A program made the position numbers and the translations under genes. From Scrofimicrobium sp. R131 (GTDB taxonomy: Bacteria; Actinomycetota; Actinomycetes; Actinomycetales; Actinomycetaceae): 64,000 nucleotides of DNA. Below are positions 4,998 through 24,440 of this stretch, piece after piece. The stretch's first letter is position 1; every line of letters begins with the position of its first letter. The stretch is taken from assembly GCF_040256745.1 (NCBI RefSeq), contig NZ_CP138335.1, positions 2,108,001 to 2,172,000 of the forward strand. Reading direction: 5' to 3'. The notes under the pieces were generated by a model that saw only the letters and a program-made list of their open reading frames with translations, did no database searches and had not been told where the DNA came from.

Positions 4998-5073
4998 GCG
5001 ACCAGGATAGCGGAAAAGCCCCCGCTGGGCCGGCGCTGGGGCCTGCACTTTTACCGGCCCTCGCGGGGAGAGC

Positions 5074-5101
5074 AAAAGCCTCCCCACCTGGGTGGGGAGG
5101 C
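5074..5101 (-). terminator. Rho-independent terminator after metQ
   Basis: A 10-bp G+C-rich stem (5078-5087 with 5092-5101) and a 4-nt loop are followed on the minus strand by TTTTG. It lies 15 bp after the metQ stop and marks the end of the metNIQ operon. Confidence 0.75.
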
Positions 5102-5115
5102 CTGCTCACAGCGGG

Positions 5116-5976: not shown

Positions 5977-6047
5977 GGTTCTTTCTTCCTTCGATTTTTG
6001 GCCTAGTGGTGGCATGATTTTGGGGTTTGACTCCGGTTGGGGATTCC

Positions 6048-6736
6048 TTAGCGGTGATCCACCAACCGGCTGATCATGTCACCGACCATTTGGATCGCTT
6101 GGACCAGGATGATGATCAACACCACCGTGACCAGCATGACGTCGTTCTGGTAGCGGACGTAACCGTAGTTGATGGCCATCTGCCCCAGGCCCCCGCCCCC
6201 ACGGCGCCGGCCATGGCCGAGTATCCGACCAGGGTAATCAGCAGCACGGTGGTGGACTGAACCAACTGGGGCAACGCCTCGCGCACCTGCACACCCCACT
6301 GGATGCGCAGATGTGAGGCCCCCATCATCTGGGCAGCCTCAATTTTGCCCGGGTGGATCGAGGCGATGTTGGTTTCCACCAGGCGGGCAAAGAACGGAAT
6401 GGCCCCAATGGTCAGGGGCACCACCACCGCTTTCCAGCCGAGCGTGGTTCCCACCAGCAGACGGGTAAACGGCTGGATCGCGATGATCAGAATGATGAAC
6501 GGGAAGGAGCGGCCAATGTTGACGATCAGGCCGACCGCCCGGTTCAGGGCTGGGCGCGGGCGCAGACCCGCCGGACCGGAGGACACCAGCAGCAGCCCGA
6601 GGGGCAGACCGAACAGGACGGTCAGGATCCCGGAGCTGAACACCATGTAGAGGGTGTCGCGCACCGCGGGCAACAGCTGGGTGGTCAGGGCCGGGTTGTC
6701 CAGCCAGGTGGGATCGTTCGGACCGAATGGAATCAT
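6048..6736 (-). CDS. metI: Methionine ABC transporter permease, frameshifted in this sequence
   Basis: Membrane subunit of the methionine importer. The N-terminal two thirds read from 6736 (MIPFGPNDPTWLDNPALTTQ) and include the permease loop ETNIASIHPGKIEAAQMMGA. The C-terminal part (LGQMAINYGYVRYQNDVML to the TAA at 6048) is in another frame. The break is at the C runs at 6190-6200, read as G on the coding strand. One additional G would restore the family sequence V-G-G-G-G-L-G-Q. A sequencing or replication slip at the homopolymer is likely. The start overlaps the end of metN by 4 bp. Confidence 0.85.
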
Positions 6737-7725: not shown

Positions 7726-7729
7726 AGTG

Positions 7730-7830
7730 TCACCTCCATCGACCCTGGCAGTAGCACCTGCCTGCGGAATCCCGGATCAGGTTGCTGCAGCTTCCTCGAG
7801 CCAGGACTCTCAGCTGCTCTAGATGGCCAA
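7730..7830 (-). ncRNA. SAM riboswitch (S-box type) of the metNIQ operon
   Basis: On the minus strand the leader of metN reads AGAGCAGCTGAGAGTCC, GGAAGCTGCAGCAACC and AGGTGCTACTGCC, which are S-box landmarks in the right order. P1 is formed by CCATC (7822-7826) and GATGG (7736-7740). The GG of that 3' strand is part of the metN Shine-Dalgarno GGAGG, so SAM binding would hide the ribosome site. I see no terminator with a U-tract between the aptamer and the start codon, so translational control is inferred. The exact SAM subclass needs a covariance search. Confidence 0.75.
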
Positions 7831-7909
7831 CCACCAGCATAAGGGGCAAACCTGGAGCGGAACACTTTCAAAGCCAAATTTTGGACAATCCGGGGCAAAC
7901 GTGACGTAT

Positions 7910-7915
7910 TAGACT
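7910..7915 (+). promoter_or_regulatory. Putative -10 element upstream of gluQ
   Basis: TAGACT ends 8 nt before the ATG at 7924. The same hexamer stands 6 nt before hisS. There is no Shine-Dalgarno sequence before gluQ, so a leaderless or nearly leaderless mRNA is inferred. Confidence 0.35.
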
Positions 7916-7923
7916 GAGTGCTC

Positions 7924-8838
7924 ATGAGTGAAGGAGCTGGCCGCTACGCCCCGTCCCCCTCGGGTCCCCTGCACATTGGGAACCTGCGCACCGCCCTGGT
8001 GGCCTGGGTGATGGCGCGGCAAACCGGCCGCCGCTTCTGGCTCCGAATTGAGGACATTGACCCGCACCGGACCGGGGCCGCTGACCAGCAAATTGCCGAG
8101 CTGGCCAGCCTGGGCCTGGACTGGGACGGCCCGGTCCTGACGCAGACTTCCCGCCTCGCCCGCTACGACGAGGTGCTGGCCGAGCTGGCGGAGCGGGACC
8201 AGCTGTTTGAGTGCTACTGCACCCGGCGGGAAATTGCCGAGGCGACCCGCGCGCCCCACACTCCCCCGCACCACTACCCGGGCACCTGCGCCCACCTGAG
8301 TGAGGCGGAGCGGCAGGAGCGCCGCGCCCAACTCGGGGATCGGGCCCCGGCCCTCCGGCTCCGCTCGCCCAAACGCGACTGGACCGTTCACGACGAGTTC
8401 TTCGGCGACTATTCGGGCCCGGTCGACTCGTTTGTCCTCCGCCGGGGCGACGGCGCCCCCGCCTACAACCTGGCCTGCGTGGTCGACGACGGTGAGACGG
8501 GGGTGGATCAGGTGGTCCGCGGGGCCGACCTGCTGCCCACCTCGCCCGGGCAGGCCTACCTGGCGCAGCTGCTCGGCTACCGCACCCCGACCTACGCCCA
8601 CGTGCCGCTGGTGGTGAACAGTGCTGGTCAACGCCTGGCCAAGCGGGACGGCGCGGTCACCCTGGAGGACCTGGGCTGGCCGACCGAGCGGGTGCTGGAG
8701 TTGCTGACCGGATCCCTCGGCGGACCCGCGGTCACCAGCCTGGCGGAATTTCGCAACACTTTCACCCCCGCAGACCTGCCGCTGGTCCCCTATGAGTTTG
8801 GCGTCACAACGGGACTTCGGCCCCACCGGGGCGGTTGA
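7924..8838 (+). CDS. gluQ: Glutamyl-Q tRNA(Asp) synthetase
   Basis: A GluRS-like enzyme lacking the anticodon-binding domain, which attaches glutamate to queuosine-34 of tRNA-Asp. The 304-aa length fits. The class I HIGH motif appears as SGPLHIGNLRTAL at the N-terminus, the lid is degenerate (LAKRDGAVTL), and a zinc-type Cys/His cluster (CYC...H...C) lies around residues 98-125. The ATG at 7924 is preceded by an in-frame GTG at 7918. It is transcribed divergently from the metNIQ operon. Confidence 0.85.
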   Translation: MSEGAGRYAPSPSGPLHIGNLRTALVAWVMARQTGRRFWLRIEDIDPHRTGAADQQIAELASLGLDWDGPVLTQTSRLARYDEVLAELAERDQLFECYCTRREIAEATRAPHTPPHHYPGTCAHLSEAERQERRAQLGDRAPALRLRSPKRDWTVHDEFFGDYSGPVDSFVLRRGDGAPAYNLACVVDDGETGVDQVVRGADLLPTSPGQAYLAQLLGYRTPTYAHVPLVVNSAGQRLAKRDGAVTLEDLGWPTERVLELLTGSLGGPAVTSLAEFRNTFTPADLPLVPYEFGVTTGLRPHRGG

Positions 8839-8843
8839 GTTCG

Positions 8844-8849
8844 TACACT
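8844..8849 (+). promoter_or_regulatory. Putative -10 element, leaderless start
   Basis: TACACT ends 6 nt before the ATG at 8856, inside the region just after the gluQ stop. The spacing puts the transcription start at the A of ATG. No Shine-Dalgarno is present. Confidence 0.45.
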
Positions 8850-8855
8850 GGACGT

Positions 8856-9164
8856 ATGTTATTTGCATTTTCGATTGCCCCCGCGACGTCCGACCAGCCC
8901 GACGGCTCCATGGCTCACATTGTGGCCCGGGCCGTGAAAGTCGTCAACGACTCGGGCCTGCCCACCGAAACCAACTCGATGTTCACCATTGTGGAAGGCG
9001 AGTGGGATCAGGTAATGCCCGTGATCAAGCGCGCCTGCGACGCAGTGGCGGAAGTGTCGCCCCGGGTCTCGCTGGTGCTGAAAGCAGACCTGCGCCCCGG
9101 CCAGGTCGACGCCATGCACGGCAAAGTTGAGCGCCTGAACGCAGAGTTGGCCCAGCATGAGTGA
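8856..9164 (+). CDS. Thiamine-binding protein, MTH1187/YkoF family
   Basis: A 102-aa protein with a ferredoxin-like fold of the MTH1187 type, a family in which thiamine binding has been described. Landmarks are AFSIAPA at the N-terminus, LPTETNSMFTIVEGEWDQVM, VSPRVSLVLKADLRPG, and a C-terminal helix with KVERLN. The ATG at 8856 is preceded by a -10-like TACACT and no ribosome site. The stop codon overlaps the start of the P450 gene by 8 bp, so the two are translationally linked. Confidence 0.8.
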   Translation: MLFAFSIAPATSDQPDGSMAHIVARAVKVVNDSGLPTETNSMFTIVEGEWDQVMPVIKRACDAVAEVSPRVSLVLKADLRPGQVDAMHGKVERLNAELAQHE

Positions 9165-10224
9165 CTGCCCGATTCAGCTGGACGGGGACGGGACGGTTCA
9201 GGTCAACGACCACGCCCTGGTGACCGAGATTGCCCGGGACGACCGGACGTTCTCCAGCGCGGTTTCCCGCTTCCTGCAGGTCCCCAACGGGATGGACGGC
9301 AAGTACCACACGGCGTTTCGCGCCCTGGTGGACCGGTACCTGAGCCCGCGGCGCGTCGCCGAACTGCAGGCCGGAACCCGCCAGCTGGCCGAGGAAGTGG
9401 TGGCGGAGGCGGTGGCCGGCTCCAACGCGATCGACGCGGTGGAACTGGGGGCCCAGTTTGCCGTTCGCGGCTCCTGCGCCTGGCTGGGTTGGCCGCGCGA
9501 ACTGGAGGCGGAACTGCTCCGGTGGGTCCACGCCAACTTTGCGGCCACCCGCTCCGGGGAACTGGAGAAGACGGCCGAGGTGGCCCGCTGGTACAACGAG
9601 ATCATCACCTCGCTGCTGAAATTCCGGCGCGAACACCCGACCGACGACGTCACCACCGAGCTGATGCAGGACCGGTCGCTGGGGCGCGCGCTCACCGACG
9701 AGGAGATCACCTCGATTCTGCGCAACTGGACCGGGGGCGACCTGGGCACCATGGCCCAGTGCGTTGGCGTGGTCGTCGCCTACCTGGCCGACAACCCGCA
9801 CCTGCAGCAGCGTCTGCGCACCGGCGTTTCCGACGCGGAATGGCAGGCGGTGCTGGATGAGATCATGCGCCTGGACGATCCGTTTATGGCCAGTCGACGG
9901 GTGGCCACCCGCGACGTCACCGTGGGCGACACCCAGGTGCAGGCCGGCCAGCGACTCCGGCTGAACTGGACGGCCGCCAACCAGGACCCGGAAGTGTTCG
10001 GCGAGCAGCGTTTCGACCCGGCCGGTCACGCCGAGTTCAACCTGGTGTGGGGCACCGGCCGCCACGCCTGCCCGGGACGAGATTTGGGCACCATGCAGCT
10101 GCGCGAGCTGATCCAAGCTTTGCTGGCCGCGACCCGAATGATTGAGCCGGCGATGGATGGGGCGCGGGTGCGGTCCGAACCGCCAGCGGGCGGCTACGAC
10201 TCGGTCCCGGTCTGGTTGAACTGA
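9157..10224 (+). CDS. Cytochrome P450
   Basis: A 355-aa heme monooxygenase-type protein, shorter than the usual 400 residues because the N-terminal region is reduced. The heme loop GTGRHACPGRDL near residue 300 has the axial cysteine. The ExxR motif is in LDEIMRLDDPF. The oxygen-binding I helix reads NWTGGDLGTM, a variant also known in some actinobacterial P450s. The substrate is unknown. It overlaps the thiamine-binding gene by 8 bp, and no ferredoxin or reductase gene is next to it. Confidence 0.88.
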   Translation: MSDCPIQLDGDGTVQVNDHALVTEIARDDRTFSSAVSRFLQVPNGMDGKYHTAFRALVDRYLSPRRVAELQAGTRQLAEEVVAEAVAGSNAIDAVELGAQFAVRGSCAWLGWPRELEAELLRWVHANFAATRSGELEKTAEVARWYNEIITSLLKFRREHPTDDVTTELMQDRSLGRALTDEEITSILRNWTGGDLGTMAQCVGVVVAYLADNPHLQQRLRTGVSDAEWQAVLDEIMRLDDPFMASRRVATRDVTVGDTQVQAGQRLRLNWTAANQDPEVFGEQRFDPAGHAEFNLVWGTGRHACPGRDLGTMQLRELIQALLAATRMIEPAMDGARVRSEPPAGGYDSVPVWLN

Positions 10225-11832: not shown

Positions 11833-12672
11833 ATGGAGCTAGTTCTGACCCTGACCTGTCCCGATCAGCCCGGCATTGTTCACGCGGTGACGGGGGCGAT
11901 CGCCAACCATGGCGGCAACATTTTGGAGTCGCAGCAGTACGGCGATGCCACGTCGAAGCGTTTCCACATGCGGGTGGAGGCGGAAGGGGTGGGCGAGGTG
12001 GATCAGCTTCGCTCCCAGTTGGGTGAGCTGGCCGCGAAGATGGACATGCGCTGGTCGCTGACGGAGGCGGGTCGGGCCGTTCCGACCATCATCATGGCCT
12101 CTAAGGAGGGGCATTGCCTGTCAGACCTGCTGTATCACACCCATGAGGGGCAGATCCCGATCGACGTGGTGGCCGTGGTGGCGAACCACGAGGATCTGCG
12201 GCCGCTGGCCGAGTTCTACCACACGCCGTTCCATCACATCCCGGTGACGAAGGAAACGAAGCACCAGGCCGAAGACCAGCTGATGGCGCTGCTGGAGGAA
12301 ACCGGGGCGGAGCTGATTGTCCTAGCCCGGTACATGCAGATCCTGTCGGATCGGGTGTGCGAGGCGATGGCCGGCCGGATTATCAACATTCACCACTCAT
12401 TCCTGCCGTCATTTAAGGGCGCCCGTCCCTACCAGCAGGCCCACGCCCGCGGGGTGAAACTGATTGGGGCGACCGCCCACTACGTCACCCCGGACCTGGA
12501 CGAGGGACCCATTATTGAGCAGGACGTCATCCGGGTCACCCACGCCGACTCGGTGCCGGAGTTGGTCTCGCAGGGCCAGGATGTGGAGCGCCGCGTCCTG
12601 TCCCGGGCCGTGCGCTGGCACGCGCAGAACCGGGTGCTGCTTAACGGGCACTCCACGGTCGTGTTCTCTTAG
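11833..12672 (+). CDS. purU: Formyltetrahydrofolate deformylase
   Basis: Hydrolyses 10-formyl-THF to THF and formate, balancing the one-carbon pool. The 279-aa protein has an N-terminal ACT domain (LTLTCPDQPGIVHAVTGAIA, to about residue 75) and a C-terminal formyltransferase domain. Active-site landmarks are NIHHSFLPSFKG (Asn, His) and TAHYVTPDLDEGPIIEQ (Asp). The apparently leaderless start is marked at 11820. The stop overlaps by 4 bp the convergent relic restriction gene. Confidence 0.93.
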   Translation: MELVLTLTCPDQPGIVHAVTGAIANHGGNILESQQYGDATSKRFHMRVEAEGVGEVDQLRSQLGELAAKMDMRWSLTEAGRAVPTIIMASKEGHCLSDLLYHTHEGQIPIDVVAVVANHEDLRPLAEFYHTPFHHIPVTKETKHQAEDQLMALLEETGAELIVLARYMQILSDRVCEAMAGRIINIHHSFLPSFKGARPYQQAHARGVKLIGATAHYVTPDLDEGPIIEQDVIRVTHADSVPELVSQGQDVERRVLSRAVRWHAQNRVLLNGHSTVVFS

Positions 12673-13271
12673 CCTTTCGGGGCGCCGGACGAACCCAACC
12701 CTTTGAAGCGTTCGACGAACTCGCTGAGCCGCTCAATCACCCGCTGTTTCAGCTTCAGGCGGGGGTTGCCCTTGGCGAAGCGGGAGACGGGCGGCAGCAG
12801 GTCGGAAATTTGGGTTCCGGTGGTGCGGAGCTCACCGTCGCGGAAGGACTCTTCGACCAGTCGCCGGGTCCGCTCTGGATCCAGTTTTTCTTCCGCAATG
12901 ATTCCGGCCAGTTCTTCCTCACGTTGCCGGGACACGTACTGCTGCCACTGAGCGTCGATCTCATCTGCCATTGAGACGGTGTCGACGAACCGTTCAATCA
13001 GGTCTTTCTTGTTCCGCAGGGACGGGCTGGAGTCAATGGCCCGGGTGATGTCAGCGCGGAACTCTTGGTCATGCTGTTGACCGCGGTCTTCCTGGTGCTG
13101 GCGCACCAACCGCAAAATGTAGTCGACGTTGATTTCGACCTGTTTGATCAGCTCAATCTCGAAGACGACGTCGTCGATGATGTCTTCTTTTTCCAGCTCG
13201 GCGGTGCGTCTGCGCTCATTACCCAGCACCTTCGCAAACTTCAATAGCAGCGACCCCGATCCGCACGCGGG
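12669..13271 (-). pseudogene. Relic type I R-M fragment: HsdM motif I fused to HsdR C-terminus
   Basis: An open frame of about 200 codons that cannot be a functional protein. It begins with PACGSGSLLLKFAKVLGNE, the SAM-binding motif I of HsdM. Without a stop it then continues into the C-terminal domain of an EcoR124-type HsdR (DDVVFEIELIKQVEINVDYI, KKDLIERFVDTVS, LPPVSRFAKG). An internal deletion therefore removed the rest of hsdM, hsdS and most of hsdR. The matching 5' half of hsdM lies 10 kb away at 23562-24253, so the pieces were once one minus-strand operon. The 3' end overlaps purU by 4 bp. Confidence 0.8.
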
Positions 13272-13275
13272 AACG

Positions 13276-13443
13276 CACAAGCGAGCAGATCGGATACAGA
13301 AATGGTTCGAGGCGTGGCTAAGCGATGAAGCAGATCAGGAAGCCAAACCCCTTCGCTTCAACGGAGAGTGGATAAAGAGCCGTCAGACTCGTCGTCTCAT
13401 GAAACTGGGTACGCCAGGCTGGTTATGCGTCAAGCCATCCTAG
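13276..13443 (+). other. Possible gene fragment at the left island edge
   Basis: The plus strand is open from the relic junction to a TAG at 13441-13443 and reads protein-like (RADRIQKWFEAWLSDE, LRFNGEWIKSRQTRRL, GTPGWLCVKPS). It has no start codon of its own and overlaps the end of gajB. It could be a 3' remnant of a gene lost during island insertion, or chance. Confidence 0.25.
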
Positions 13444-14691
13444 ATGAGCATCTTGAACCAGCGCTCGCGGTACATCTTTACGGAGCGCCAACCCGTTTCT
13501 TCCGCTAAATGGTTCAGCGGTGTCACCAGACCAATCCTTTTTCGCGCCATCCGACGCATCACTCTCGCACTCAGGAGGTTCCCACCATTCGATGGGGAGC
13601 GTCGGGTTATCCTGCAGGCGTTTGGTTAGCTTTTTCGAGTCAACGATGATGGCCACCGACAGCCTCGCTCGTGTGACGGCCACGTAGAAGCTGCATGCGC
13701 TCTTCGCTGCCATTGCTTTGCCTGTAGAGATGAGATCTAGCATCGGTTGCGTGGGGTAGATTATCACGCGGTCGTAGGTCAGCCCTTTGACCTGACCAAT
13801 GTTCGTAAATCCCAGATGATTGAGGTGCTTTCCTGACGCAGCGCTGCCACGCAGCAGAACCGCTCCATAGCGTTGAACGTAGTCGTTCAGATGCGGCTCG
13901 AGAACTAGGAAAACGCCATCATGTCCGGTGATTTCTTTATTGGCCGACGTTGTCGGCGCGAATCCCAGTTCTGGGGGAAAGATCGCGTCAGAGAAGCTCG
14001 CGATGGTCTGGTTAGACCTGAAAGTCGTGGTCATCTCTTCGATGGTGAGACGTTCACTTTTCTCATGGTCTCGGTACCAGCTCAATAACTGCAACCGATC
14101 TGCGTTCTTGTTTCTGGACGACATGAGGTCGCTGTCCAGCAAGGATTGCCGAACATCGCCAACCATGACTAAACGCAGGCTCGTAAAGTCGAGGAGTCGG
14201 GCCAGTATGTCCAGACTCTTGCGACTGATGTCTTGTACTTCATCGATGATGATCTCGTCGTAGATTCGACTCAGTCGATTCTCGACCTTGCCTTGTGCCG
14301 CTTCAGCCACCTTAACGGAGAGCTCAGGCAAGCTCTCTCGATAGATCGAGCCGTTAGAAGAGAAATAACGTGCTTCTCCTTTCAAGCGGAAGTGGTCCTT
14401 CGGATGCAGGTTGCGATCAAAAATGAACCCCGTGGGCCTGACTTCATCGAAGAGGCACGGCAGGTACGGGCGCACGTAATGCTTGATTAGGAACGCATAC
14501 CAGCCAATTACGTCAGGTACCTGGTCTGCGCTGCACGCGGCGGAGAGCCTCGATATCAGCTCCTCTTGCCCCGACTCGGTCAGGGTGATGATGAGCCTCC
14601 GCTTGGGCCTCTCCCGGTTTGCGCAGGCACGTACGATGCGCTCAGTCTTGCCCGAACCGGCGGCGGCGTGCACGAACAGGTGGTTGTTCAT
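13423..14691 (-). CDS. gajB: Gabija-type UvrD-like helicase (GajB-like)
   Basis: A 422-aa superfamily 1 helicase, the partner of the upstream OLD nuclease in Gabija anti-phage defence. Motifs in order: Walker A AAAGSGKT at 9-16, DEVQD at 150-154, VGDVRQ at 177-182, FRSN at 224-227, QVKGLTYDRVI at 300-310 and VAVTRAR at 337-343. The protein is close to the usual GajB size and much shorter than UvrD/PcrA. The ATG at 14691 overlaps the gajA stop as ATGA. The frame is open further upstream, but that part lies inside gajA. It is the last gene of the island operon. The Gabija call rests on the OLD plus UvrD pairing. Confidence 0.8.
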   Translation of the reverse strand: MNNHLFVHAAAGSGKTERIVRACANRERPKRRLIITLTESGQEELISRLSAACSADQVPDVIGWYAFLIKHYVRPYLPCLFDEVRPTGFIFDRNLHPKDHFRLKGEARYFSSNGSIYRESLPELSVKVAEAAQGKVENRLSRIYDEIIIDEVQDISRKSLDILARLLDFTSLRLVMVGDVRQSLLDSDLMSSRNKNADRLQLLSWYRDHEKSERLTIEEMTTTFRSNQTIASFSDAIFPPELGFAPTTSANKEITGHDGVFLVLEPHLNDYVQRYGAVLLRGSAASGKHLNHLGFTNIGQVKGLTYDRVIIYPTQPMLDLISTGKAMAAKSACSFYVAVTRARLSVAIIVDSKKLTKRLQDNPTLPIEWWEPPECESDASDGAKKDWSGDTAEPFSGRNGLALRKDVPRALVQDAHLGWLDA

Positions 14692-16310
14692 GAGCCTGCT
14701 GGCGTATCTGCCATGATCGCGACGATGGCCTCGCTGATGTATTTGGGAGCTGAAAGCTCTTCTGCAGTCTCGGCGAGCGCCAAAGCCGCGTCGGTCTTGT
14801 GGCTGGTCATCCACTTAAGGACATCATCACAATCCTGGACATCGAGCGACCGACGGATGACGTCCTCACCGTTCGCGTAAATCAACTGCGGTTCGAGGGT
14901 TTCACCACCCGCCACCTCTCCAACGTAGAGTTCACGTCGGCCATCAATGAGGTAGGCATTCAACTTCGCGCGAACGTCGTCAGGACTCTTGCCGTCGTTG
15001 TCTCGGATCGCCACCATGCGTTTGTCGAGCAGTGCCGCAAGCTCGAAACCACGCCTGAATGACGTACCACTAATCGACATGACATCGACACCCATGTCGA
15101 GGGGTTCCTTGTCGTATTTGTCCGAGAAGAAGCGATTGAACAGAATCTCATCAGATGGCCCTTCAACGAGCACCATTCGGTCGGCGAGCAGGATTCTCAG
15201 GGTGTCAAACCCAGAGAGCTTCCGAAAGTAAGCCGTGGTGGTAGCATCCATGTCACCGAGCTTGTGAATACCCCCGTTGCTCAGGAGCGCAAGCTGATCA
15301 ACACCCAACCGGTTGAGAACATACGAACTATGTGTAGTAATGAAAACCTGACGGTCGGCTGCCAGAGCACTGATCAGCTTGAGTAGTACCCGCAGGCGAG
15401 TGTGCGACAGGTGATTCTCTGGCTCCTCGACCAGCACATAGTTGCTCTTCGACGCAGTTCGATCCATCGCAAGTATCGTTTTCGCTATAGCTTGTTCACC
15501 TTGCCCAGACAGGCTGAACGGGATCGAATCTAGATCGGGCACGAGAGTTGCCTCCCACGACGCTGCCCGCGACTGGTCAACTTGCACGCCCACCGTAGGC
15601 CCCCGCAGACCTTCGGATTCCTGCGCTAACGAGCGATTCAGGTCGGTCAGTAGGTCTTGGCCGAGCTTTGAGCGCATCTTTCGGTACTCGACAGCGATAC
15701 CCGTACGCGCGCGCTCATCCAGGCGCTCCTCAAGCAATTGCTTCGTGTAGTAATCAAGTGCTCGCTCTGAACGGATCGTCTGGCCATCGATAACCACGAT
15801 ATTGATATCTTTGGGTTTCCTATACAAGGACGTTGAGTGGAAGTCGTGCCAGTCAAGCCGGTAGTACTCCACTGGCAGAACCCGTGGGCAATCTGGTTGC
15901 TCGAGATATGACTCCAATTCTTGCACATAGTCTTCATCTGGATGTGCATGCATCGTAACGCCGACTGAATCTTCCTTCGCCATATTGTGCATGCCGCGCA
16001 TCTTTTCGGCATCGCCGCGTTCCACATCCAAGTAGACGTCGATTCGGAACTCAGGGGGCTTCGGTTTTTTACCTGCTTCAAGGTCATCGAAGAACGCGAC
16101 TACCAGATCCTTGTTGAACCAGTACGGATTGAGTAGGTCACTTGCCCAACGACCACCGTTCAAGCGTCCCGTCAACACCATTGAGATAGCTTCAAGAATC
16201 GTGGATTTTCCAGCCTCGTTGCCACCAACAATGATGTTCATTTTCTCGTCAGGTTCAAAGATAAGCTCCTTGAAACAACGAAACCCCCGGATGTGAACCT
16301 TGGTAATCAC
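14688..16310 (-). CDS. gajA: Gabija-type OLD-family ATPase/TOPRIM endonuclease (GajA-like)
   Basis: A 540-aa protein with an N-terminal ABC-type ATPase and a C-terminal TOPRIM nuclease. Walker A GGNEAGKST is at 29-37, the signature LSGQGEQ at 267-273, Walker B VLVEEPENH at 292-300 and the H-loop THSS at 326-329. The TOPRIM domain has its glutamate in LVEGPSDE (381-388) and its acidic pair in RDNDG (436-440), so the metal site looks intact. In Gabija, GajA cuts DNA when nucleotide is depleted, with GajB acting alongside. The start overlaps the hsdS stop and the stop overlaps the gajB start, both as ATGA. Other OLD-based systems exist, but the helicase partner favours Gabija. Confidence 0.85.
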   Translation of the reverse strand: MITKVHIRGFRCFKELIFEPDEKMNIIVGGNEAGKSTILEAISMVLTGRLNGGRWASDLLNPYWFNKDLVVAFFDDLEAGKKPKPPEFRIDVYLDVERGDAEKMRGMHNMAKEDSVGVTMHAHPDEDYVQELESYLEQPDCPRVLPVEYYRLDWHDFHSTSLYRKPKDINIVVIDGQTIRSERALDYYTKQLLEERLDERARTGIAVEYRKMRSKLGQDLLTDLNRSLAQESEGLRGPTVGVQVDQSRAASWEATLVPDLDSIPFSLSGQGEQAIAKTILAMDRTASKSNYVLVEEPENHLSHTRLRVLLKLISALAADRQVFITTHSSYVLNRLGVDQLALLSNGGIHKLGDMDATTTAYFRKLSGFDTLRILLADRMVLVEGPSDEILFNRFFSDKYDKEPLDMGVDVMSISGTSFRRGFELAALLDKRMVAIRDNDGKSPDDVRAKLNAYLIDGRRELYVGEVAGGETLEPQLIYANGEDVIRRSLDVQDCDDVLKWMTSHKTDAALALAETAEELSAPKYISEAIVAIMADTPAGS

Positions 16311-17803
16311 GACACCAACTCCCCGATCTCTCGCACCAGAGGCAACACACAGTCAAGTTTGGACACAATACGCTGCTGTTCAGACGGCGTAGGCAGTGGG
16401 AAAGGCAGCCTTTTCACCGCTTCGAGTGGGACACGCTTCTGTCCCGCTGTTCCAGTCATTTGAGGCACCAAACCTGCCTGCACATATTCACTCTTCAAAA
16501 AGGAAAGTAAATAGTCGGCTTCAACACGAGTTCCTGGCCTTAGTACGTGAAGCTCAGTTGTGCCCGCCCCAGAAACTGACCCAAGGTTGCGAATGACCGC
16601 TGACTTCCTATTCTGAAAGCACGGCGTAATCTTGGCGATAACAACATCACCCTCGCCAAACTTTGTATATCCTGTCTTGACTTCCCGCCAACTTCGTACA
16701 ACGGGATGGATCCTGCCCGAAATTCCGTCCTCAATATTGGCCATGGAGAGGAAACCAATTACGTCAGAATCAACCGCTTTGACGGGTGGACTTGAAATAG
16801 CGGCAAAACCGAGACGAACCCATTCCCAGGTGTCTGGCAGCTCAAAGGGCTCGTCTGTTTTATCCACTGGTGGCAGTGGCTGCTGTTTTTTGATTTTGCC
16901 CTCCTGTTCGAGTTGCTGGCGTTCGTTCTTGATGGTTTCAAGGAGTTCGGTGGCTGTACCGTCTTCGGGGAGTTGCTTGGTGAGTTTGCCGCTGATGGCA
17001 GCTTGGAGGATCGCGCGTTCGATTGCCTTCGCGAACTCGCGGTCTAGATGCTCTCTCTCTCTCTCGAGTTCAGCAAGTTGGTCAATGAGCGGCAGAACCT
17101 CATCGAGTTTCGCGATTATGCGTTCCTGTTCGGCCAGCGGTGGCAGCGGAAGCGGCAGCTCAAGGATGGTGCCCAAGTTGAGTTCTTGCTGCTTAGTAGT
17201 TCCGCTTGTCAAATCATCCATGTTCTGCTGAATATGTGGCGACGAGATGAAGACGTCAACAAACCGAGGAAGTACCTTTCGGAAGGTTCGTATAACTGTG
17301 ACATGCGAATCCGCTGCCATCGCCGAGTAGTCACCTGAGTCAGGTAAAACTGTTGACCGGCCTACAGTGCCAGTGCCTGTCGAATTCCATAGAATGTCGC
17401 CTGCGCTCAGAATTCGTTCCTGCGGAAGCGCCTCGAAGGCCTTGGGCGCATACGGGCGCGCAAATGTGGAATCAAACCCCGACCAACGCACGCACTTTTG
17501 AGAGACCGCCGAGTACGGTGAAACATCTGCATAGATCGGAGATTTCCCGCGCTGAGCATATCTCGCGACTTCCCCCACACGAGTCCATACCCAACTCGGG
17601 GGGATCACGAATTGCCGATCCTCGCCTGTAATGGGTGGCAGCAACTTCGCTTTCTTCAGTTTCTTCTCTTTGATAAGTGCATCGCGTTCGGCAGCAATCT
17701 GTTCGAGGAGTTCTGTTGCGGTGCCGTCTTCTGGGCGCTGGTCGGTGAGTCTGCCGCTGATCGCTGCTTGGAGGATAGCGGCGCGGAGGCGGTCAGCGAT
17801 CAT
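16307..17803 (-). CDS. hsdS: Type I restriction-modification specificity subunit
   Basis: Sets the recognition sequence of the type I complex. At 498 aa it has the classical two-half layout. The first conserved segment contains RAAILQAAISGRL, followed by target-recognition domain 1 (about 65-215). The central repeat LPLPPLAEQERIIAKLDEVL to ERAILQAAISGKL comes next, then recognition domain 2 (about 320-460) and the second repeat LPFPLPTPSEQQRIVSKLD. The repeats AILQAAISG and EDGTATELLE appear twice, as expected for a gene that can recombine its halves. It overlaps hsdM (ATGA) upstream and gajA (ATGA) downstream. Confidence 0.93.
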   Translation of the reverse strand: MIADRLRAAILQAAISGRLTDQRPEDGTATELLEQIAAERDALIKEKKLKKAKLLPPITGEDRQFVIPPSWVWTRVGEVARYAQRGKSPIYADVSPYSAVSQKCVRWSGFDSTFARPYAPKAFEALPQERILSAGDILWNSTGTGTVGRSTVLPDSGDYSAMAADSHVTVIRTFRKVLPRFVDVFISSPHIQQNMDDLTSGTTKQQELNLGTILELPLPLPPLAEQERIIAKLDEVLPLIDQLAELEREREHLDREFAKAIERAILQAAISGKLTKQLPEDGTATELLETIKNERQQLEQEGKIKKQQPLPPVDKTDEPFELPDTWEWVRLGFAAISSPPVKAVDSDVIGFLSMANIEDGISGRIHPVVRSWREVKTGYTKFGEGDVVIAKITPCFQNRKSAVIRNLGSVSGAGTTELHVLRPGTRVEADYLLSFLKSEYVQAGLVPQMTGTAGQKRVPLEAVKRLPFPLPTPSEQQRIVSKLDCVLPLVREIGELVS

Positions 17804-19272
17804 TCGGTCACCGCCAGTAGTGCTTCGATCTGCGCGATTTTTGCATCGATTTGTGCATCAAGTTCAGCGCGCTTTGCCTTGTACTCAGCGATGGTCTCTT
17901 CTGGGCTGAGAACGACGGTTGTTTGCTGCGGGAAGCCGCACCTATCGAGGTTGTAGCCGCCTTCGATGAGCTGATCGGCGGTGAACCGCTGGGCTTTGGG
18001 GTTCCCGTCAGCGTCTTCGATCTCTTGGCGATCCGCCCACCACTCAACGGCGTCATCCAGGTGTTCTCTCAGCATTGGTCTGGTTTTTGAGAAGGCTTTG
18101 TAGCCTTCGGGGAGGTCAACTCGGTAGTACCAGGTCTCTTTGGTTCCGCCGGTGTTGTCGAAGAACAGCAGGTTGGTGGCAATCGAGGTGTAGGGCGAGA
18201 ACACTGATCCTGGCAGTCGAATGACGGTGTGAAGGTTAAACTCCTTGAGGAGCCGCTCTTTCAGTGCAAGTTTCGCTCCGTCGTTACCGAAGAGGAACCC
18301 GTCGGGCAGCACGACCCCGGCTCGCCCGTTTCGTTTGAGCCGGTAGGTGATGAGCGCGATGAAGAGGTCTGCGGTTTCGGAAGACCGGAAGGCTTGCGGA
18401 AAGTTGGCCTTCACCGACTCTTGTTCAGTTCCACCGTAAGGCGGATTCATGGTGACGACGTCAAACTTCTCGCTGTCTTTGAAGTCGCGTACGCTACGTT
18501 CGAGTGAGTTGCCGTGAATGAACTGGGGCTGGTCTACGTCGTGCAGCAGTAGGTTGGTCACGCCGAGCAAGTACGGCATTGGTTTCTTTTCGATGCCGTA
18601 AACGCTGGAACGGTATGCCTCGCGGTCTTCAACGCTTTCGACCTGTTTGTCGAGATGTTTGAGCGCTGAGGTGAGGAACCCAGCTGTTCCGGCAGCAAAG
18701 TCCGCGACGGTCTCGCCAAGTTTGGGGTTGATCATCTCGATCATAAAGTCGGTGACCGCGCGTGGCGTGTAGTACTCACCTGAGCTGCCCGCACTTTGGA
18801 GTTCTTTCAAGAGTGTTTCGTAGATCTCGCCGAATGCGTGACGGTCTGCGTAATCCTCGAAGTCGATCTCGTCGATGAGATTAACGAGCTGCCTGATGAG
18901 GATGCCATCCTTCATGTACTGGTTTGAGTCTTCGAATACGGCGCGCACGACTGATTGGCTGAGTGGTGTCGATACGGTGATCGGCAGAGCTTTGAGGGCC
19001 GGGAAGAGTTCCGTGTTGAGGAATGTAAGTAGTTCTTCGCCGGTTTTGGAGCGCCCGTCTTTCAGGTCTGGTGCCCAGGAGCGCCAGCGGAGCGCCTCGG
19101 GGATGATGGATTCGTAGGCTGGGTTGTGGAACTCCCAGTCTGCTTCTTTCGCGTCGTAGACCTTAAGGAACAACAGCCAGGTGAGCTGGGCGATGCGTTG
19201 GGCGTCGCCGTCGACCCCGGCGTCTCCGCGCATGATTTTGCGGGAGGTGGAAATAAATGAGTTCAAGCTCAT
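17800..19272 (-). CDS. hsdM: Type I restriction-modification DNA methyltransferase subunit
   Basis: N6-adenine methyltransferase of the island's type I system, 490 aa. Motif I is DFAAGTAGF at 191-199 and the catalytic motif IV is NPPY at 276-279. The N-terminal helical HsdM domain precedes these, and a C-terminal coiled-coil-like helix (EETIAEYKAKRAELDAQIDA) contacts HsdS in the family. It starts 16 bp after the hsdR stop, with AAGGAG in the gap, and its stop overlaps hsdS as ATGA. It differs strongly from the relic hsdM at 24.2 kb (motif I AAGTAG rather than ACGSGS), so the two systems are unrelated lineages. Confidence 0.94.
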   Translation of the reverse strand: MSLNSFISTSRKIMRGDAGVDGDAQRIAQLTWLLFLKVYDAKEADWEFHNPAYESIIPEALRWRSWAPDLKDGRSKTGEELLTFLNTELFPALKALPITVSTPLSQSVVRAVFEDSNQYMKDGILIRQLVNLIDEIDFEDYADRHAFGEIYETLLKELQSAGSSGEYYTPRAVTDFMIEMINPKLGETVADFAAGTAGFLTSALKHLDKQVESVEDREAYRSSVYGIEKKPMPYLLGVTNLLLHDVDQPQFIHGNSLERSVRDFKDSEKFDVVTMNPPYGGTEQESVKANFPQAFRSSETADLFIALITYRLKRNGRAGVVLPDGFLFGNDGAKLALKERLLKEFNLHTVIRLPGSVFSPYTSIATNLLFFDNTGGTKETWYYRVDLPEGYKAFSKTRPMLREHLDDAVEWWADRQEIEDADGNPKAQRFTADQLIEGGYNLDRCGFPQQTTVVLSPEETIAEYKAKRAELDAQIDAKIAQIEALLAVTE

Positions 19273-19288
19273 CGGCTACTTGTGCTCC

Positions 19289-21688
19289 TTATGCAGCTTC
19301 GTAGAGGGCATCTTCGAGATCACGAATTGCCTGCAGGTAGGCGTCGCGTCCTCCAAAGAGACGGGCAATCTTCTGCGGTGATCCGTACTGGGTGAACGGG
19401 TCAACGCTGAGGATTCTGGTTGTTTCGATTTCAGATATACCGATATCTGCGTACTTATCCAAGAGCGCCTCCAACACTTCGCGGCAGGTGTCTGAATATT
19501 TGTGAAGGTAGCCACGCTTCTTGACATGATCGATGCGCTCTTGTTTGGTCAGTGGAGGCCTGTCGAACGCGATGTGGAGGATGAGGTCGAAATCGTCGAC
19601 GTCGAAGAATCTGCCGTCAGCTTCTTCTCGGATGGCTTCAAGGAAGGCGCCTCGGCTGTTGAGCTGGCCGATGAGTTCGTCTTTTCGTTCGGCCTGCGAC
19701 CAAGCGGTGAGGAATGAGTCGAGGCTGGAGTAGGTATTCAGCAATGAACGCTTCGAGAAGTCGCGGATCGATTCGGTCACGAGTTTTCCGGTGACGGGAT
19801 CGACGTACTGCACGCGTTCGTTGAGCAGTTTGACTTCAACACCCCGAACTCGCACCTTCCCTTGCTTTTCGGGGTCCGGTTCGGTGATCCACGGTGGATT
19901 ACAGATGATCACACCATCCGGGCCGGAGTTCTCGATGTCATCTCCATCCCCGGGGTCTTCTACAGTTTCGTCGTCTGGCCATTCGGGTTCGGGGATCTCG
20001 CCATCGTCTCCAGGCTCGGGCGGAGGCATGTCGATGCTGCCTGCTGGGTTGCCGTCGAAGTCTGGGTCGGCAAATAGTCGGGTTGATCCACGGAAGTCCA
20101 TGATTGTGAAAAACTCTTTGCCGTGTTCAGGATCGAGCCGGGTGCCGCGTCCAACGATCTGTTTGAACTCCGTCATCGACCCGATGTTGGACTCCAAGAC
20201 GATGAGCTTGATCGTTTTGACGTTGACACCCGTGGTGAGCAGTTTTGACGTGGTGACCAGTGTCGGATACTGCTCGTTGACATCAGCGAAATTGTCGAGC
20301 TGAGCCTTGCCCTCTTTATCATCTCCGGTGATCTTCATAACGTATCGGTAGTCCTCGATAACCCGCTCAAGGTTCTCGTTCGCTAGGGCTTGACGCATCC
20401 GTTCGGCGTGCTCAATATCGACGCAGAACACGATGGTCTTCGAGTCCGTGCCGTACTTCTCCAGCCAGGACGTCACGTACTTGGCGACCATCTGGGTGCG
20501 CTCGTCAATGATGAGGTTACGGTCGTAGTCTTTGACGTTGTACTCGCGATCTTCGACTTCGTTGCCGTCGACATCGACCTGCCCCTCGAACGGTCGCCAG
20601 TTCTCCAGGTCGACGTCCAAGCCAACACGAATCACCTTGTACGGGGCGAGGAAGCCATCCTTGATACCCTGTTTCAAACTGTAGGTGTAGACGGGTTCAC
20701 CGAAGTAGTCGATGTTCGACACTTCCTTCGTCTCTTTCGGTGTTGCCGTCATACCAATGTGGATGGCACTCGAGAAGTAATCGAGAACACGCCTCCACAG
20801 CGATTCCTCGCGCACTGATCCACGGTGGCACTCGTCAATGATGACGAGGTCAAAGAACTCGGGTTTGAACTGCCGGAATGGTTCTTCACCCTCTTCACCG
20901 GCAAGCTGCTGATACAAGCTCATGTAGACCTCGTAGGAGGAATCCAATTGTTTGCCTTTGACCTTGGTAATGCGGCCTGAGAGCGGCTCAAAGTCACCGT
21001 TAATGGTCTGATCAATCAACACATTGCGGTCGGCCAGGTAGAGCACCCGCTTCACATAGCCAGCTTTGAGGAGCCTCCAAATGATCTGAAACGCGGTGAA
21101 CGTCTTACCAGTTCCGGTGGCCATGACCAGGAGTAGACGGCGGTCGCCGTGAGCAATTGCTTCCAGCGTGCGGTCTATCGCTGCTTGTTGGTAATAGCGG
21201 GCTTCTTGCGGTTTGAACGGGTCAACATGGCATGGCTCCGCAATCAGTGCCGCACCTTCAGCATTGAGACCTTTGCCGACCATGTAGCGCCGCCACAGCT
21301 CCTCTTCGGTTGGAAACTCATCCAAGCCAATCTCTCGCTCAATACCGGTGAAGAAGTCGTGCTCGATGAAGCCCCTGCCATTTGATGAGTAGGCAAACGG
21401 CGCGTCAAGCTTCGCGGCATACCCAAGCGCCTGCTGGAGGCCTGCGGCGACGGTGTGTTCCATGTCTTTGGCTTCAACAACCGCAAGCGGCTTACGGGAC
21501 TTCGAACCCAGCAACACGTAATCCGCTTTGCTGATCTCGTCACGTTTAGTCTTGGTCCCTTGAACAATGACCTGCCCCGGAGCGATGACAAGTTCCATTC
21601 GCAACTGCTCTTTACGCCAACCAGCCGTCTCGGTGATTGCAGGAGTGATAAACCTGAGCTTGACGTCCTCTTCAGTGAGCTTTGACAT
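19289..21688 (-). CDS. hsdR: Type I restriction endonuclease subunit R, EcoEI type
   Basis: ATP-driven translocase and nuclease of the type I complex, 799 aa. The N-terminal PD-(D/E)XK nuclease is seen as ADYVLLG followed by AVVEAKD (Asp56, Glu72, Lys74). The superfamily 2 motor follows: MATGTGKTF at 189-197, DECH, MTATPKE and QIVGRGTRLDP. A C-terminal domain of the EcoEI type begins around residue 640. The ATG at 21688 lies inside the end of the HTH gene, overlapping it by 17 bp. All catalytic motifs are present, so it appears functional. Confidence 0.93.
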   Translation of the reverse strand: MSKLTEEDVKLRFITPAITETAGWRKEQLRMELVIAPGQVIVQGTKTKRDEISKADYVLLGSKSRKPLAVVEAKDMEHTVAAGLQQALGYAAKLDAPFAYSSNGRGFIEHDFFTGIEREIGLDEFPTEEELWRRYMVGKGLNAEGAALIAEPCHVDPFKPQEARYYQQAAIDRTLEAIAHGDRRLLLVMATGTGKTFTAFQIIWRLLKAGYVKRVLYLADRNVLIDQTINGDFEPLSGRITKVKGKQLDSSYEVYMSLYQQLAGEEGEEPFRQFKPEFFDLVIIDECHRGSVREESLWRRVLDYFSSAIHIGMTATPKETKEVSNIDYFGEPVYTYSLKQGIKDGFLAPYKVIRVGLDVDLENWRPFEGQVDVDGNEVEDREYNVKDYDRNLIIDERTQMVAKYVTSWLEKYGTDSKTIVFCVDIEHAERMRQALANENLERVIEDYRYVMKITGDDKEGKAQLDNFADVNEQYPTLVTTSKLLTTGVNVKTIKLIVLESNIGSMTEFKQIVGRGTRLDPEHGKEFFTIMDFRGSTRLFADPDFDGNPAGSIDMPPPEPGDDGEIPEPEWPDDETVEDPGDGDDIENSGPDGVIICNPPWITEPDPEKQGKVRVRGVEVKLLNERVQYVDPVTGKLVTESIRDFSKRSLLNTYSSLDSFLTAWSQAERKDELIGQLNSRGAFLEAIREEADGRFFDVDDFDLILHIAFDRPPLTKQERIDHVKKRGYLHKYSDTCREVLEALLDKYADIGISEIETTRILSVDPFTQYGSPQKIARLFGGRDAYLQAIRDLEDALYEAA

Positions 21689-21908
21689 CGCTGTCCCCCT
21701 CCACGCCTTCGACGATTTCTGTAATGTCGCTCAGCCCGCAGTCGAGTGCTTCGGAGATCTTGACGAGTACGGCGGTCGTGACGTTTTCATTGCGTCCGAG
21801 CTTGGCGACGGTGCCGGAGCTGATCCCAGCTTTGTGCTGGAGGTCGCGTTTGAGCCATCCTTTGTCGACGAGCTTCTTCCACAACGGGTTGTAGCTGATC
21901 CTTCTCAT
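21672..21908 (-). CDS. HTH (Cro/C1-type) regulator of the defence operon
   Basis: A 78-aa single-domain XRE-family protein (ISYNPLWKKLVDKGWLKRDL, GISSGTVAKLGRNENVTTAV, KISEALDCGLSDI). Small regulators of this kind often precede restriction-modification genes and control their expression. In the raw sequence the frame is continuous with the DUF3800 gene upstream. The internal ATG at 21908 is however the natural start: in the neighbouring frame a DUF3800 stop codon (TGA) overlaps it as ATGA, like the other junctions in this operon. The 3' end overlaps hsdR by 17 bp. Autoregulation is inferred. Confidence 0.75.
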   Translation of the reverse strand: MRRISYNPLWKKLVDKGWLKRDLQHKAGISSGTVAKLGRNENVTTAVLVKISEALDCGLSDITEIVEGVEGDSDVKAH

Positions 21909-22517
21909 TGCTCGTCTACCTCTCGCTCGTCTGTCTTCTTGTTCCATTGCCCCCCCGTACAAGGCGTTGGTGTCAGCCCCGAGAGTAATCACGCTTGTAG
22001 CCTGCACGATCTTTCCAACAGGTGTTCCTGCGTAGTCTTTTTTGCGGTCGAAGTCGTAAACAGTGTTGGAGATTACATCATGTAACTTGCTGACCTTGAC
22101 GCCACCCCTAGTGTCCTTCTTATCAAGATAGATACGTGACCTGCCTGTGGAAGAAATGACGTTCCGAACGAGGTAGAACATCATTTTGTCGTACCAGTCA
22201 TCATGGCTTTGCCCGAACTTAGCATGGTCGAGTCCGTCTTTGGGAGCCACCACTGCCCTCAACTCGAGATCATCATCCTCGAAGAAGTAGTCCACTACAT
22301 CGAGGTAGAAGTCGAGCTTACCTGCTGAGACCTTGTTCCACTTAATCTCGAAGTCACGGGGTAATCCATGCTCTTCGCGAAGCTCAACCAGCCGATGAGA
22401 GATGTCCTTCGTGAGCGCGACCGGTGAGACAACTGCTCCGAGCACCATGAACGGCTTGCCGTCGTTGGGACGATGGGTGCTCTCATCGCAATAGACGTTG
22501 ATGTCACCATTCACCAT
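21906..22517 (-). CDS. DUF3800-domain protein, probably frameshifted at its 3' end
   Basis: The N-terminus INVYCDESTHRP, the segment LVELREEHGLPRDFEIKWNK and SRIYLDKKDTRGG match the DUF3800 family. That family is predicted RNase H-like and is common near defence genes and prophages; its activity is unknown. The start at 22517 begins the family sequence; the upstream extension does not look coding. The raw frame runs on into the HTH gene to 21672. The switch is at seven C (21950-21956): with six, the protein ends QWNKKTDEREVDEQ and stops at TGA overlapping the HTH start. First gene of the island operon. Confidence 0.7.
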
Positions 22518-22727
22518 TCTCACCTCACTTTCAGGTACCTTGCCAATTCTATCGCCGCGCCCAATATCCTGCGGACACCTCGGAGTTGCTTGCCGCTGCC
22601 AAGTTTGTGCGTGCTCCAAGTGCTCTCACGAGAAAGGCTTAACTTTTCGTTTGCTCGTGGCCTCGCCTCAGAGAGCTTTGCACGCAATCCGGCATCACTG
22701 ACGTTGGCTCTATAGAAGGAGCCAGCC

Positions 22728-23235
22728 ATGACCAAAGAACTACGGGTGTTCGATAATCACGATTTCAGCAACAACCGTACTCACCGATGGTGGGCGGAGG
22801 CTGTTTTGCGGAAAGGATGCCGCCACTACGTTCGATTTTGAGGACCCAACCAAGGTTCTCGAACACTGTTGTCGTGGGGTGGCAGAACACCACATCATCG
22901 TCGATGCGCTAGGTCGTACCCAAGATACGCGTATCATCACCGAAGTCTATCTCTACCAATCGGTCGCATCCTCGAAGCTGGCTGTGGCGGAACGTCTAGA
23001 ATCGTGGGTGTTCGATAGGGCGTCGGCGTCAATTCGTCGCCACGGCATTTGCGCGATCGCCGAGCCGCTGAAGTACGCCAATTTCCTCGAAGAAGCGATC
23101 CACACACTGCGCCGAGTGGCCGGCTCGTCTCGCTGCCGAAAAGACTATGCTCAATATTGCTCCGTAGATCTCATACTTCGACCTGGCGCTAAGGTCGTCG
23201 CCGCTATTGGCCACGACAGAGTAGGTACATGGTGA
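22728..23235 (+). pseudogene. Hypothetical protein in two frames, inside the island
   Basis: From the ATG at 22728 (good site AGAAGGAG 6 nt upstream) the frame reads MTKELRVFDNHDFSNN and stops at about 22842. The +1 frame continues protein-like (DFEDPTKVLEHCC, HHIIVDALGRTQDTRIITEV, ANFLEEAIHTLRR) to the TGA at 23233-23235. One extra base near the TTTT at about 22803-22806 would explain the break. No family is recognised. It is the only plus-strand gene in the island, divergent from the DUF3800 gene, with a TATAGA box near 22711. It could be an antitoxin- or defence-type gene, but I cannot assign it. Confidence 0.4.
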
Positions 23236-23375
23236 ATTACTCACAAATAGTTGAAAAGCTACCGAGCAAATCTAAACCGACACCAAGTATTTTACTCAGT
23301 CGCTCAGGATCAATGCTGTCGGAGCCTATCGCAGGACCGTGCTGCTTCAGGAAACACCTTACGACTTTACTTTAG
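23229..23375 (+). CDS. Small hypothetical ORF, 48 aa
   Basis: ATG at 23229 overlaps the stop of the preceding plus-strand gene by 7 bp and the frame runs to TAG at 23373-23375 (MVNYSQIVEKLPSKSKPTPS at the start). It has no recognised motif or clear ribosome site. The rest of the AT-richer gap to about 23560 shows no gene I can support. Confidence 0.2.
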   Translation: MVNYSQIVEKLPSKSKPTPSILLSRSGSMLSEPIAGPCCFRKHLTTLL

Positions 23376-23561
23376 CTAATCGCACGCCCCCTCGTCACTG
23401 ATAACTTCAAGTTCATGCTCATCGCTAAACCTCCCTCCTGAACGTCCGCACACTCTGCCAAATGTGCTGGAAGCCGCTTTCACCAACTACGTCGAGTTTG
23501 CACCACTCTCGCTGCATGCACGCAGCCGCCGCAAACCCGTATCCATTCCGCTTGAAAACCT

Positions 23562-24253
23562 TCGTAGACTTTGCTGATCTTGGTCTTACCCCTGGTCGTA
23601 ATGCGTGCCAACAGCTCAGAGACCTCTTGGGGCGTGTAGAACTCCCCACCAGACTTGCCCGCACTGGAGGCGTACATCTGCATTAGGTACTCGTAGGCGT
23701 CACCAAAGAGATCGATCGTGTTGTCCCCGAAATCGCCCAACGGCAGCCTGGCAATCTCATTGAGCAGCTTCACCAGCTTTTCATTGCGTTTGGCGACCGT
23801 GGTGCCCAGCTTCGGACTGTTCACGTCCAGGTCGTCAAACAGTCCCTTGATGTCGTTCTCACTGTCGTACCCAACAGCTGACCCCTCAATGTTTTTGAAC
23901 ACCTGTTCAAGGGTCTCGTTTAGGTTCTCATCTTGGGCCGCGCGGCCGCGGACGTTTTCAAACAGCTCAGAGGGGCGAATGTAAAAGCCTTTGTCCTTGA
24001 TCAGGTCAACGACGTCGTCGTCACCAATTTCATCGTCGGAGCATTTGGCGAAGTCGAAGTTCACGTTGCCGGACGCATGCTCACCCTGATTGATGTAGTT
24101 GGTCAGGTTTTCAGAGATGAAGCGGTAGAACAGCATTCCCAGGACATAGGACTTGAAGTCCCACCCGTCCACCGAACCGCGCAGATCGTTGGCAACCTGC
24201 CAAATCATCTTGTGCAGCTCTGCCCGCTGTCCGTTGCCTCCGGCCGCTACCAT
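23562..24253 (-). pseudogene. Relic hsdM, 5' half
   Basis: N-terminal half of a second, unrelated type I methyltransferase. It reads QRAELHKMIWQVANDLRGSV, DGWDFKSYVLGMLFYRFISE, GGEFYTPQEVSELLARITT and KISKVY, and then diverges exactly where motif I (DPACGSG) should follow. The missing motif I is found at 13271, at the other end of the island. The raw frame runs on to 23480 as non-family sequence. The start at 24253 has GGGAGG 7 nt upstream. The methyltransferase cannot be active because motifs I and IV are absent here. Confidence 0.8.
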
Positions 24254-24440
24254 CCTGTTGCCTCCCACCTCTGGTCGTGGTTCTTGACCACGCCCCATTG
24301 TCCAACTCAAGAAACTCTACTCACCATACATTTGACCTCCGACAAGTAGCTAAATCCGGCTGGTTTACGGCAAAGACTGGCGGCGCCAACTGCGGGTTGG
24401 GACGTGGCCGCTGCCAGGTCCAATCAACACCCAAGAGCAA

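What the first reader, a model, noticed from the sequence alone, without database searches (positions are those of the whole stretch)
13423..22517. Type I R-M and a Gabija-like pair fused into one overlapping operon
Seen: on the minus strand DUF3800, HTH, hsdR, hsdM, hsdS, gajA-like and gajB-like genes follow each other. There are 4-bp ATGA overlaps at hsdM/hsdS, hsdS/gajA and gajA/gajB, a 17-bp overlap HTH/hsdR and a 16-bp gap hsdR/hsdM. Catalytic motifs look intact in HsdR, HsdM, GajA and GajB. Known: Gabija and type I systems are usually separate neighbours in defence islands. Inference: the unit may be co-regulated, with the OLD nuclease and helicase acting as back-up when restriction is evaded, or even using HsdS/HsdM marks.
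Basis: partly seen in the sequence, partly recalled or inferred. Interest (0 to 1): 0.85.

Follow-up and report, generated by a model that had tools for sequence, protein, structure and literature searches.

The report
Restriction operon with Gabija-type nuclease tail
[quoted passage not shown] this pair has been attached repeatedly to the ends of quite different restriction systems, so it looks like a plug-in backup module and not one fused machine.

Summary
The operon is real: DUF3800(truncated)-HTH-hsdR-hsdM-hsdS-OLD-UvrD on the minus strand, core motifs intact, overlaps as stated (hsdS/OLD is GTGA, not ATGA). OLD-UvrD belongs to a divergent subclade of Gabija (GajAB) with a shorter helicase. 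Its nearest relatives (57% and 54%) sit at the 3' end of type III restriction operons. Across 86 loci an RM gene is the immediate co-directional upstream neighbour of OLD in 13 of 64 cases, but the downstream neighbour of UvrD in 0 of 43. RM-linked members are scattered on the tree, so attachment happened repeatedly. Conversely, a congener has the same HsdR/HsdM (95%/96.5% identical) with a protein kinase gene instead of OLD-UvrD and no HTH; homology stops exactly at hsdR's start and hsdS's stop. So this is an exchangeable, probably co-transcribed second defence layer. The cassette lies inside a decayed element integrated into motif I of an older hsdM, with attL/attR like those of serine-recombinase elements in two congeners. 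Precedents: PrrC and DarTG2 in type I loci, OLD nucleases in BREX. New variant of a known kind; the mechanistic link (RM-made DNA ends feeding OLD-UvrD) is inferred, untested.

The parts
13274..23562 (.). Element (about 10.3 kb) inserted in an older hsdM; approximate attR (13274) and attL (23562) crossover points
   Evidence: Junction sequences shared with serine-recombinase elements in two congeners; GC about 53-56% vs 66% outside
21672..22517 (-). DUF3800 (C-terminally truncated) fused in frame to the HTH regulator
   Evidence: Pfam DUF3800 9.7e-6, PADLOC PDC-M04A 7.9e-53; homologs match only residues 6-159, intact gene 234 aa
21672..21908 (-). Cro/C1-type HTH regulator with its own ATG and Shine-Dalgarno-like sequence
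   Evidence: HTH_26 3.7e-11; 57% identical to the HTH that opens the type III-OLD-UvrD operon L010, 47% to the HTH next to OLD in L060
19289..21688 (-). hsdR, EcoAI/EcoEI (type IB) family, 799 aa
   Evidence: NF046051 1075 bits; EcoEI_R_C; 95% identical to HsdR of congener G396; dN 0.027, dS 0.51
17800..19272 (-). hsdM, N6-adenine methyltransferase, 490 aa
   Evidence: N6_Mtase 7.9e-60; 96.5% identical to G396 HsdM; dN 0.021, dS 0.64
16307..17803 (-). hsdS, two target-recognition domains, 498 aa
   Evidence: PADLOC Specificity_I 345 bits; conserved regions shared with G396 HsdS, recognition domains different
14688..16310 (-). OLD nuclease (ABC ATPase + TOPRIM), GajA-type, GTG start overlapping the hsdS stop
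   Evidence: PDLC00098 547 bits over 1-530; OLD-like_TOPRIM; model pLDDT 87.6, top PDB fold GajA 8u7i/8sm3
13423..14691 (-). UvrD-like SF1 helicase, short GajB-type, 422 aa; ordered part to about residue 386
   Evidence: PDLC00140 304 bits; model pLDDT 88.5, top PDB fold Gabija complex 8tk1
23563..24310 (-). N-terminal half of an older (EcoR124-like) hsdM, cut just before motif I
   Evidence: TIGR00497 hsdM 289 bits; intact 522-aa homolog in G398 and an unbroken homolog in G400
12669..13273 (-). Remnant: hsdM motif I (PACGSGSLLLKFAKVLG) joined by a deletion to the C-terminus of an EcoR124-type HsdR
   Evidence: EcoR124_C 1.5e-43; sequence
23223..23590 (-). attL and adjoining remnant of the element shared with the prophage-like insert in G396 (71% over 375 bp)

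Best explanation
The operon is a layered, modular defence cassette. An HTH regulator and a type IB restriction-modification enzyme (HsdR2M2S) form the first layer; an independent OLD nuclease plus UvrD helicase of the Gabija type is appended as a second layer and is probably translated by coupling from the hsdS and OLD stop codons. Most likely mode of action: HsdRMS methylates self DNA and cuts unmodified invading DNA; the OLD-UvrD pair acts as a Gabija complex, nicking or processing DNA with free ends not protected by the host end-processing nuclease, so it catches linear, restriction-cut or restriction-evading phage DNA. The two layers need no physical contact and the tail can be moved between RM types. 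Shown: gene content, intact motifs, overlaps, Gabija-type relationship, recurrent 3' attachment to RM operons, existence of the same RM core without the tail. Inferred: co-transcription, HTH control, OLD-UvrD complex formation, the DNA-end model, and the division of labour.
For: Gabija-type relationship by profiles, sequence and fold. Nearest relatives L010 (57%) and L011 (54%) end type III RM operons with -4 and -1 bp spacing, L010 opening with a homologous HTH. RM gene immediately upstream in 13/64 co-directional cases vs 0/43 downstream, Fisher p 0.0014, background 3.2% of nearby genes. RM-linked tips scattered on the OLD tree: 12 changes, at least 9 forced by starred branches. Of the two OLD-positive genomes among 396 sampled in the phylum, one is the window itself and the other (L134) is mod-res-OLD-UvrD. 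Congener G396 keeps HsdR/HsdM without the tail. Published: PA14 Gabija is proposed to act on linear DNA devoid of RecBCD (PMC12407980); PrrC embedded in a type IC locus senses restriction inhibition (PMC12707154); OLD/TOPRIM modules as backups in BREX (PMC12839542).
Against: No expression or activity data. Most relatives of the pair are stand-alone, so no RM partner is needed in general. The subclade is distant from the biochemically studied Bacillus GajA (PDB match only 3.6e-8; other PADLOC GajA models at most 113 bits). No promoter or terminator signal stood out over shuffles. The 13-vs-0 test uses partly related loci, an incomplete sample and profiles seeded from these loci; my control with classical GajA found too few pairs to compare.
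Confidence: 0.62

Rival explanations
1. Guard model, as in PrrC: the OLD-UvrD effector is kept silent by the restriction enzyme and released when a phage anti-restriction protein disables it.
For: Precedents: PrrC in the type IC EcoprrI locus (PMC12707154) and PARIS, whose OLD ATPase detects Ocr (PMC12839542). Tight translational coupling. [quoted passage not shown]
Against: The same clade follows type I, type III, IIG and BREX-related enzymes that share no obvious surface, and most members have no RM neighbour; the congener RM lacks it.
Confidence: 0.17
2. Ordinary defence-island juxtaposition: two independent systems landed side by side; the overlaps reflect only selection for compact operons.
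For: Gabija and RM both cluster in islands; OLD-UvrD is mostly stand-alone; the junction is recent because a congener has the same HsdRM with another downstream gene.
Against: Directional bias, 13/64 upstream and 0/43 downstream; the nearest relatives have the same layout with type III enzymes.
Confidence: 0.18
3. OLD-UvrD uses the HsdM/HsdS methylation pattern to tell self from non-self.
For: Physical linkage to a methyltransferase.
Against: Exchange among RM systems of different types and the many stand-alone members; no modification-reading domain found in either protein.
Confidence: 0.03

Closest known systems
Gabija (GajA-GajB), Bacillus cereus VD045 and P. aeruginosa PA14
   Same: Class 2 OLD (ABC ATPase + TOPRIM) adjacent to a UvrD-like helicase; best PDB match by sequence and fold
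   Different: Sequence-distant subclade, shorter helicase (relatives mostly 340-390 aa vs 494 aa), attached to an RM operon here
RptR-hsdMS-DarTG2-hsdR island (RRDM) of EPEC E. coli (PMC12255303)
   Same: Small regulator first, type I RM, second defence module within the same unit
   Different: Second module is a DarTG2 toxin-antitoxin between hsdS and hsdR; relation of RptR to the HTH here was not tested
EcoprrI-PrrC (type IC)
   Same: Accessory effector encoded with a type I RM
   Different: PrrC is a tRNA anticodon nuclease embedded in hsd genes and held by the enzyme; here a DNA nuclease-helicase pair at the 3' end
OLD/TOPRIM backup effectors in BREX loci (PMC12839542)
   Same: OLD nuclease modules recruited next to methyltransferase-based defence
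   Different: Here type I (and, in relatives, type III/IIG) restriction operons with a helicase partner
Mod-Res-OLD-UvrD operons of Arcanobacterium sp. (L010) and Corynebacterium pseudodiphtheriticum (L011)
   Same: Nearest OLD-UvrD sequences; same position at the operon 3' end; L010 has a homologous HTH in front
   Different: Type III instead of type I RM

Membership tests
Type I restriction-modification (EcoAI/type IB) | HsdR with nuclease and helicase motifs, HsdM with motifs I/IV, HsdS with two TRDs, adjacent | tested here: met
Gabija (class 2 OLD) | OLD ABC ATPase + TOPRIM with intact Walker/signature and TOPRIM acidic residues | tested here: met
Gabija (class 2 OLD) | Adjacent UvrD/PcrA/Rep-like helicase with intact motifs | tested here: met
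Gabija (class 2 OLD) | Helical insert in the TOPRIM domain that distinguishes class 2 from class 1 OLD | tested here: inconclusive
   Model has helices after the TOPRIM core, but they were not superposed on GajA; GajA and class 1 OLD (6p74) fold scores are close
Gabija (class 2 OLD) | GajA4-GajB4 complex | not testable with these tools
   No complex prediction available
Gabija (class 2 OLD) | Nucleotide-inhibited site-specific nicking and phage defence | not testable with these tools
   Needs biochemistry and plating
PrrC-type guarded effector | Effector confined to type I loci | tested here: not met
   Most relatives stand alone or follow other RM types

The most novel reading that the evidence does not exclude
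OLD-UvrD is a specialised RM-tail effector: free DNA ends made by type I/III/IIG restriction on phage DNA, when host end-processing is blocked by the phage, are the activating substrate, so cutting by layer one licenses layer two. This would explain the repeated attachment of the pair to the 3' end of unrelated RM operons.
Probability: 0.25. Interest if true: 0.7.

Novelty: new variant of a known kind. Interest (0 to 1): 0.45.

Why it matters
How Gabija tells self from non-self is open; a preprint proposes that it attacks linear DNA lacking RecBCD (PMC12407980). A Gabija-type pair repeatedly wired to the end of restriction operons of different types offers a natural test: does restriction supply the ends? 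It also shows that RM operons are assembled from exchangeable parts (regulator, RM core, tail), with borders at start and stop codons, and suggests a directional search rule (what follows RM genes) for finding further backup effectors.

Tried and rejected
Viral-contig scan with the OLD protein gave no relative; phage records gave only two distant Listeria matches. An attP-half pattern in viral contigs gave nothing. Promoter/terminator scan did not exceed shuffles. Control with a classical GajA model found only 5 matches in 396 genomes, two of them with a clear helicase neighbour and none with RM upstream: too few to compare. Search of five congeners for OLD found none (no positive control in that set). 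A RecB model found no hit over cut-off in the genome; AdnAB-type enzymes were not tested. Rejected: an hsdS-specific fusion and use of methylation marks.

Full report
What is there. The low-GC island (about 53-56% against 66%) on the minus strand holds, 5' to 3', a DUF3800/HTH frame, hsdR, hsdM, hsdS, an OLD nuclease and a UvrD-like helicase. DUF3800 is damaged: homologs match only its residues 6-159, while an intact relative is 234 aa, and the rest is fused in frame to the HTH, which has its own start and Shine-Dalgarno-like sequence.

Identity. HsdR is an EcoAI/EcoEI-type (IB) subunit (NF046051, 1075 bits). The OLD protein fits PADLOC GajA models PDLC00098/00102 over its whole length (547 and 545 bits) but other GajA models at 113 bits or less; the helicase fits GajB PDLC00140 at 304 bits. 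In the PDB the top sequence matches are GajA (3.5e-8) and GajB (0.002) of Bacillus cereus, and the top fold matches of confident models (pLDDT 87.6 and 88.5) are again Gabija chains (8u7i 1.2e-21; 8tk1 2.4e-14), with class 1 OLD close behind for the nuclease (6p74, 1.3e-19). So it is a divergent Gabija-type pair.

Where else it occurs. The pair is common and mostly stand-alone: 1720 plasmid records hold relatives, for example the enterobacterial IncFII-type plasmid copy beside vapBC and a Xanthomonas copper plasmid. In 80 genomic loci and some plasmid loci the contexts were charted. Tight RM contexts: type III in L010 (-4 bp), L011 (-1), L082 (8), L005 (125) and L134 (59); type I in the window, L054 (-40, embedded between hsdS and hsdR), L067 (16, same), L055 (215), L069 (99), L034 (131), L088 (135); IIG-like enzymes (DUF7149-DUF7814-Eco57I-TaqI_C) in L047 and L085; a PLD-helicase plus Eco57I-type MTase in L056. 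RM genes are the immediate co-directional upstream neighbour in 13 of 64 loci and the downstream neighbour of the helicase in 0 of 43 (Fisher p 0.0014; 3.2% of nearby genes are RM; loci are not fully independent). On the OLD tree the window is sister to L010 and L011 (SH-aLRT 100), and RM-linked tips need 12 changes, at least 9 forced by starred branches. Attachment has therefore happened repeatedly.

The RM core without the tail. Congener G396 carries HsdR 95% and HsdM 96.5% identical, DNA about 85% identical over 4.9 kb, beginning at the hsdR start; the shared hsd sequence ends at the hsdS stop; dN/dS is about 0.05 or below. There hsdS is followed by a protein-kinase gene (Pkinase 1.8e-21) and hsdR is not preceded by the HTH. 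Five congeners have no OLD hit. The type I core is thus maintained by selection without OLD-UvrD, and both flanks are exchangeable. In the type III operon L010 an HTH 57% identical to the window's opens the operon and OLD-UvrD closes it: regulator and tail are shared while the RM core differs.

How it got here. The cassette lies in an older, EcoR124-like hsd locus: hsdM is cut just before motif I, and beyond the cassette motif I is joined to an HsdR C-terminus by a deletion. In congeners G396 and G397 homologous hsdM genes are cut at the same point, by elements with two large serine recombinases and, in G396, phage genes in a roughly 51-kb insert. The window shares both junctions (right: TGTATCCRATCYGCTCGCTTGTGCG; left: 71% over 375 bp) but has no recombinase gene left in the island. 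Serine-integrase elements inserted in hsdM are already known from streptococcal ICEs (PMC4701971, PMC7563491).

How it works (inferred). First layer: classical type I restriction. Second layer: an independent Gabija-type nuclease-helicase. Published work proposes that PA14 Gabija attacks linear DNA devoid of RecBCD (PMC12407980) and that OLD/TOPRIM modules are backups in BREX (PMC12839542). A tail that works on DNA ends fits attachment to any DNA-cutting enzyme. A PrrC-like guard is possible but less likely because the partner changes type; dependence on HsdM/HsdS marks is unlikely. None of this was tested by experiment.

Verdict. New variant of a known kind: an RM operon with a Gabija-type tail. 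I found no paper in the held library describing it for type I or III systems, but the library is partial.

Noticed in passing
window 13273-12669 and 24310-23563; L096, L097, L123, L124: hsdM motif I is the attachment site of serine-recombinase elements in at least three species of this genus; G396 carries a roughly 51-kb phage-like insert there. The window copy has no recombinase gene left.
   Followed up: partly
L122:860-967 and 2638-9238: In G396 the near-identical hsdRMS cassette lies about 3 kb from another attR-like sequence, with IS elements nearby and serine-recombinase fragments further out on both sides: the RM cassette itself may travel on such elements.
   Followed up: partly
L122:2638-3921: A Ser/Thr protein-kinase gene directly follows hsdS in G396, in the slot taken by OLD-UvrD in the window: possibly another RM-tail effector.
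   Followed up: no
L054:11575-14741; L067:11610-14649: OLD-UvrD embedded between hsdS and hsdR together with further genes (a GmrSD_N protein in L054): nested defence in type I loci of a spirochaete and a flavobacterium.
   Followed up: no
plasmid hits, e.g. L136:3995-6564: About 1,450 Klebsiella and E. coli plasmid records carry a relative of the OLD-UvrD pair, mostly about 31% identical, annotated AAA ATPase/helicase UvrD; in the one inspected it lies beside vapBC.
   Followed up: partly
L134:15307-17115: A second OLD-like TOPRIM ATPase lies upstream of mod in the L134 type III operon, so that operon has OLD proteins at both ends.
   Followed up: no
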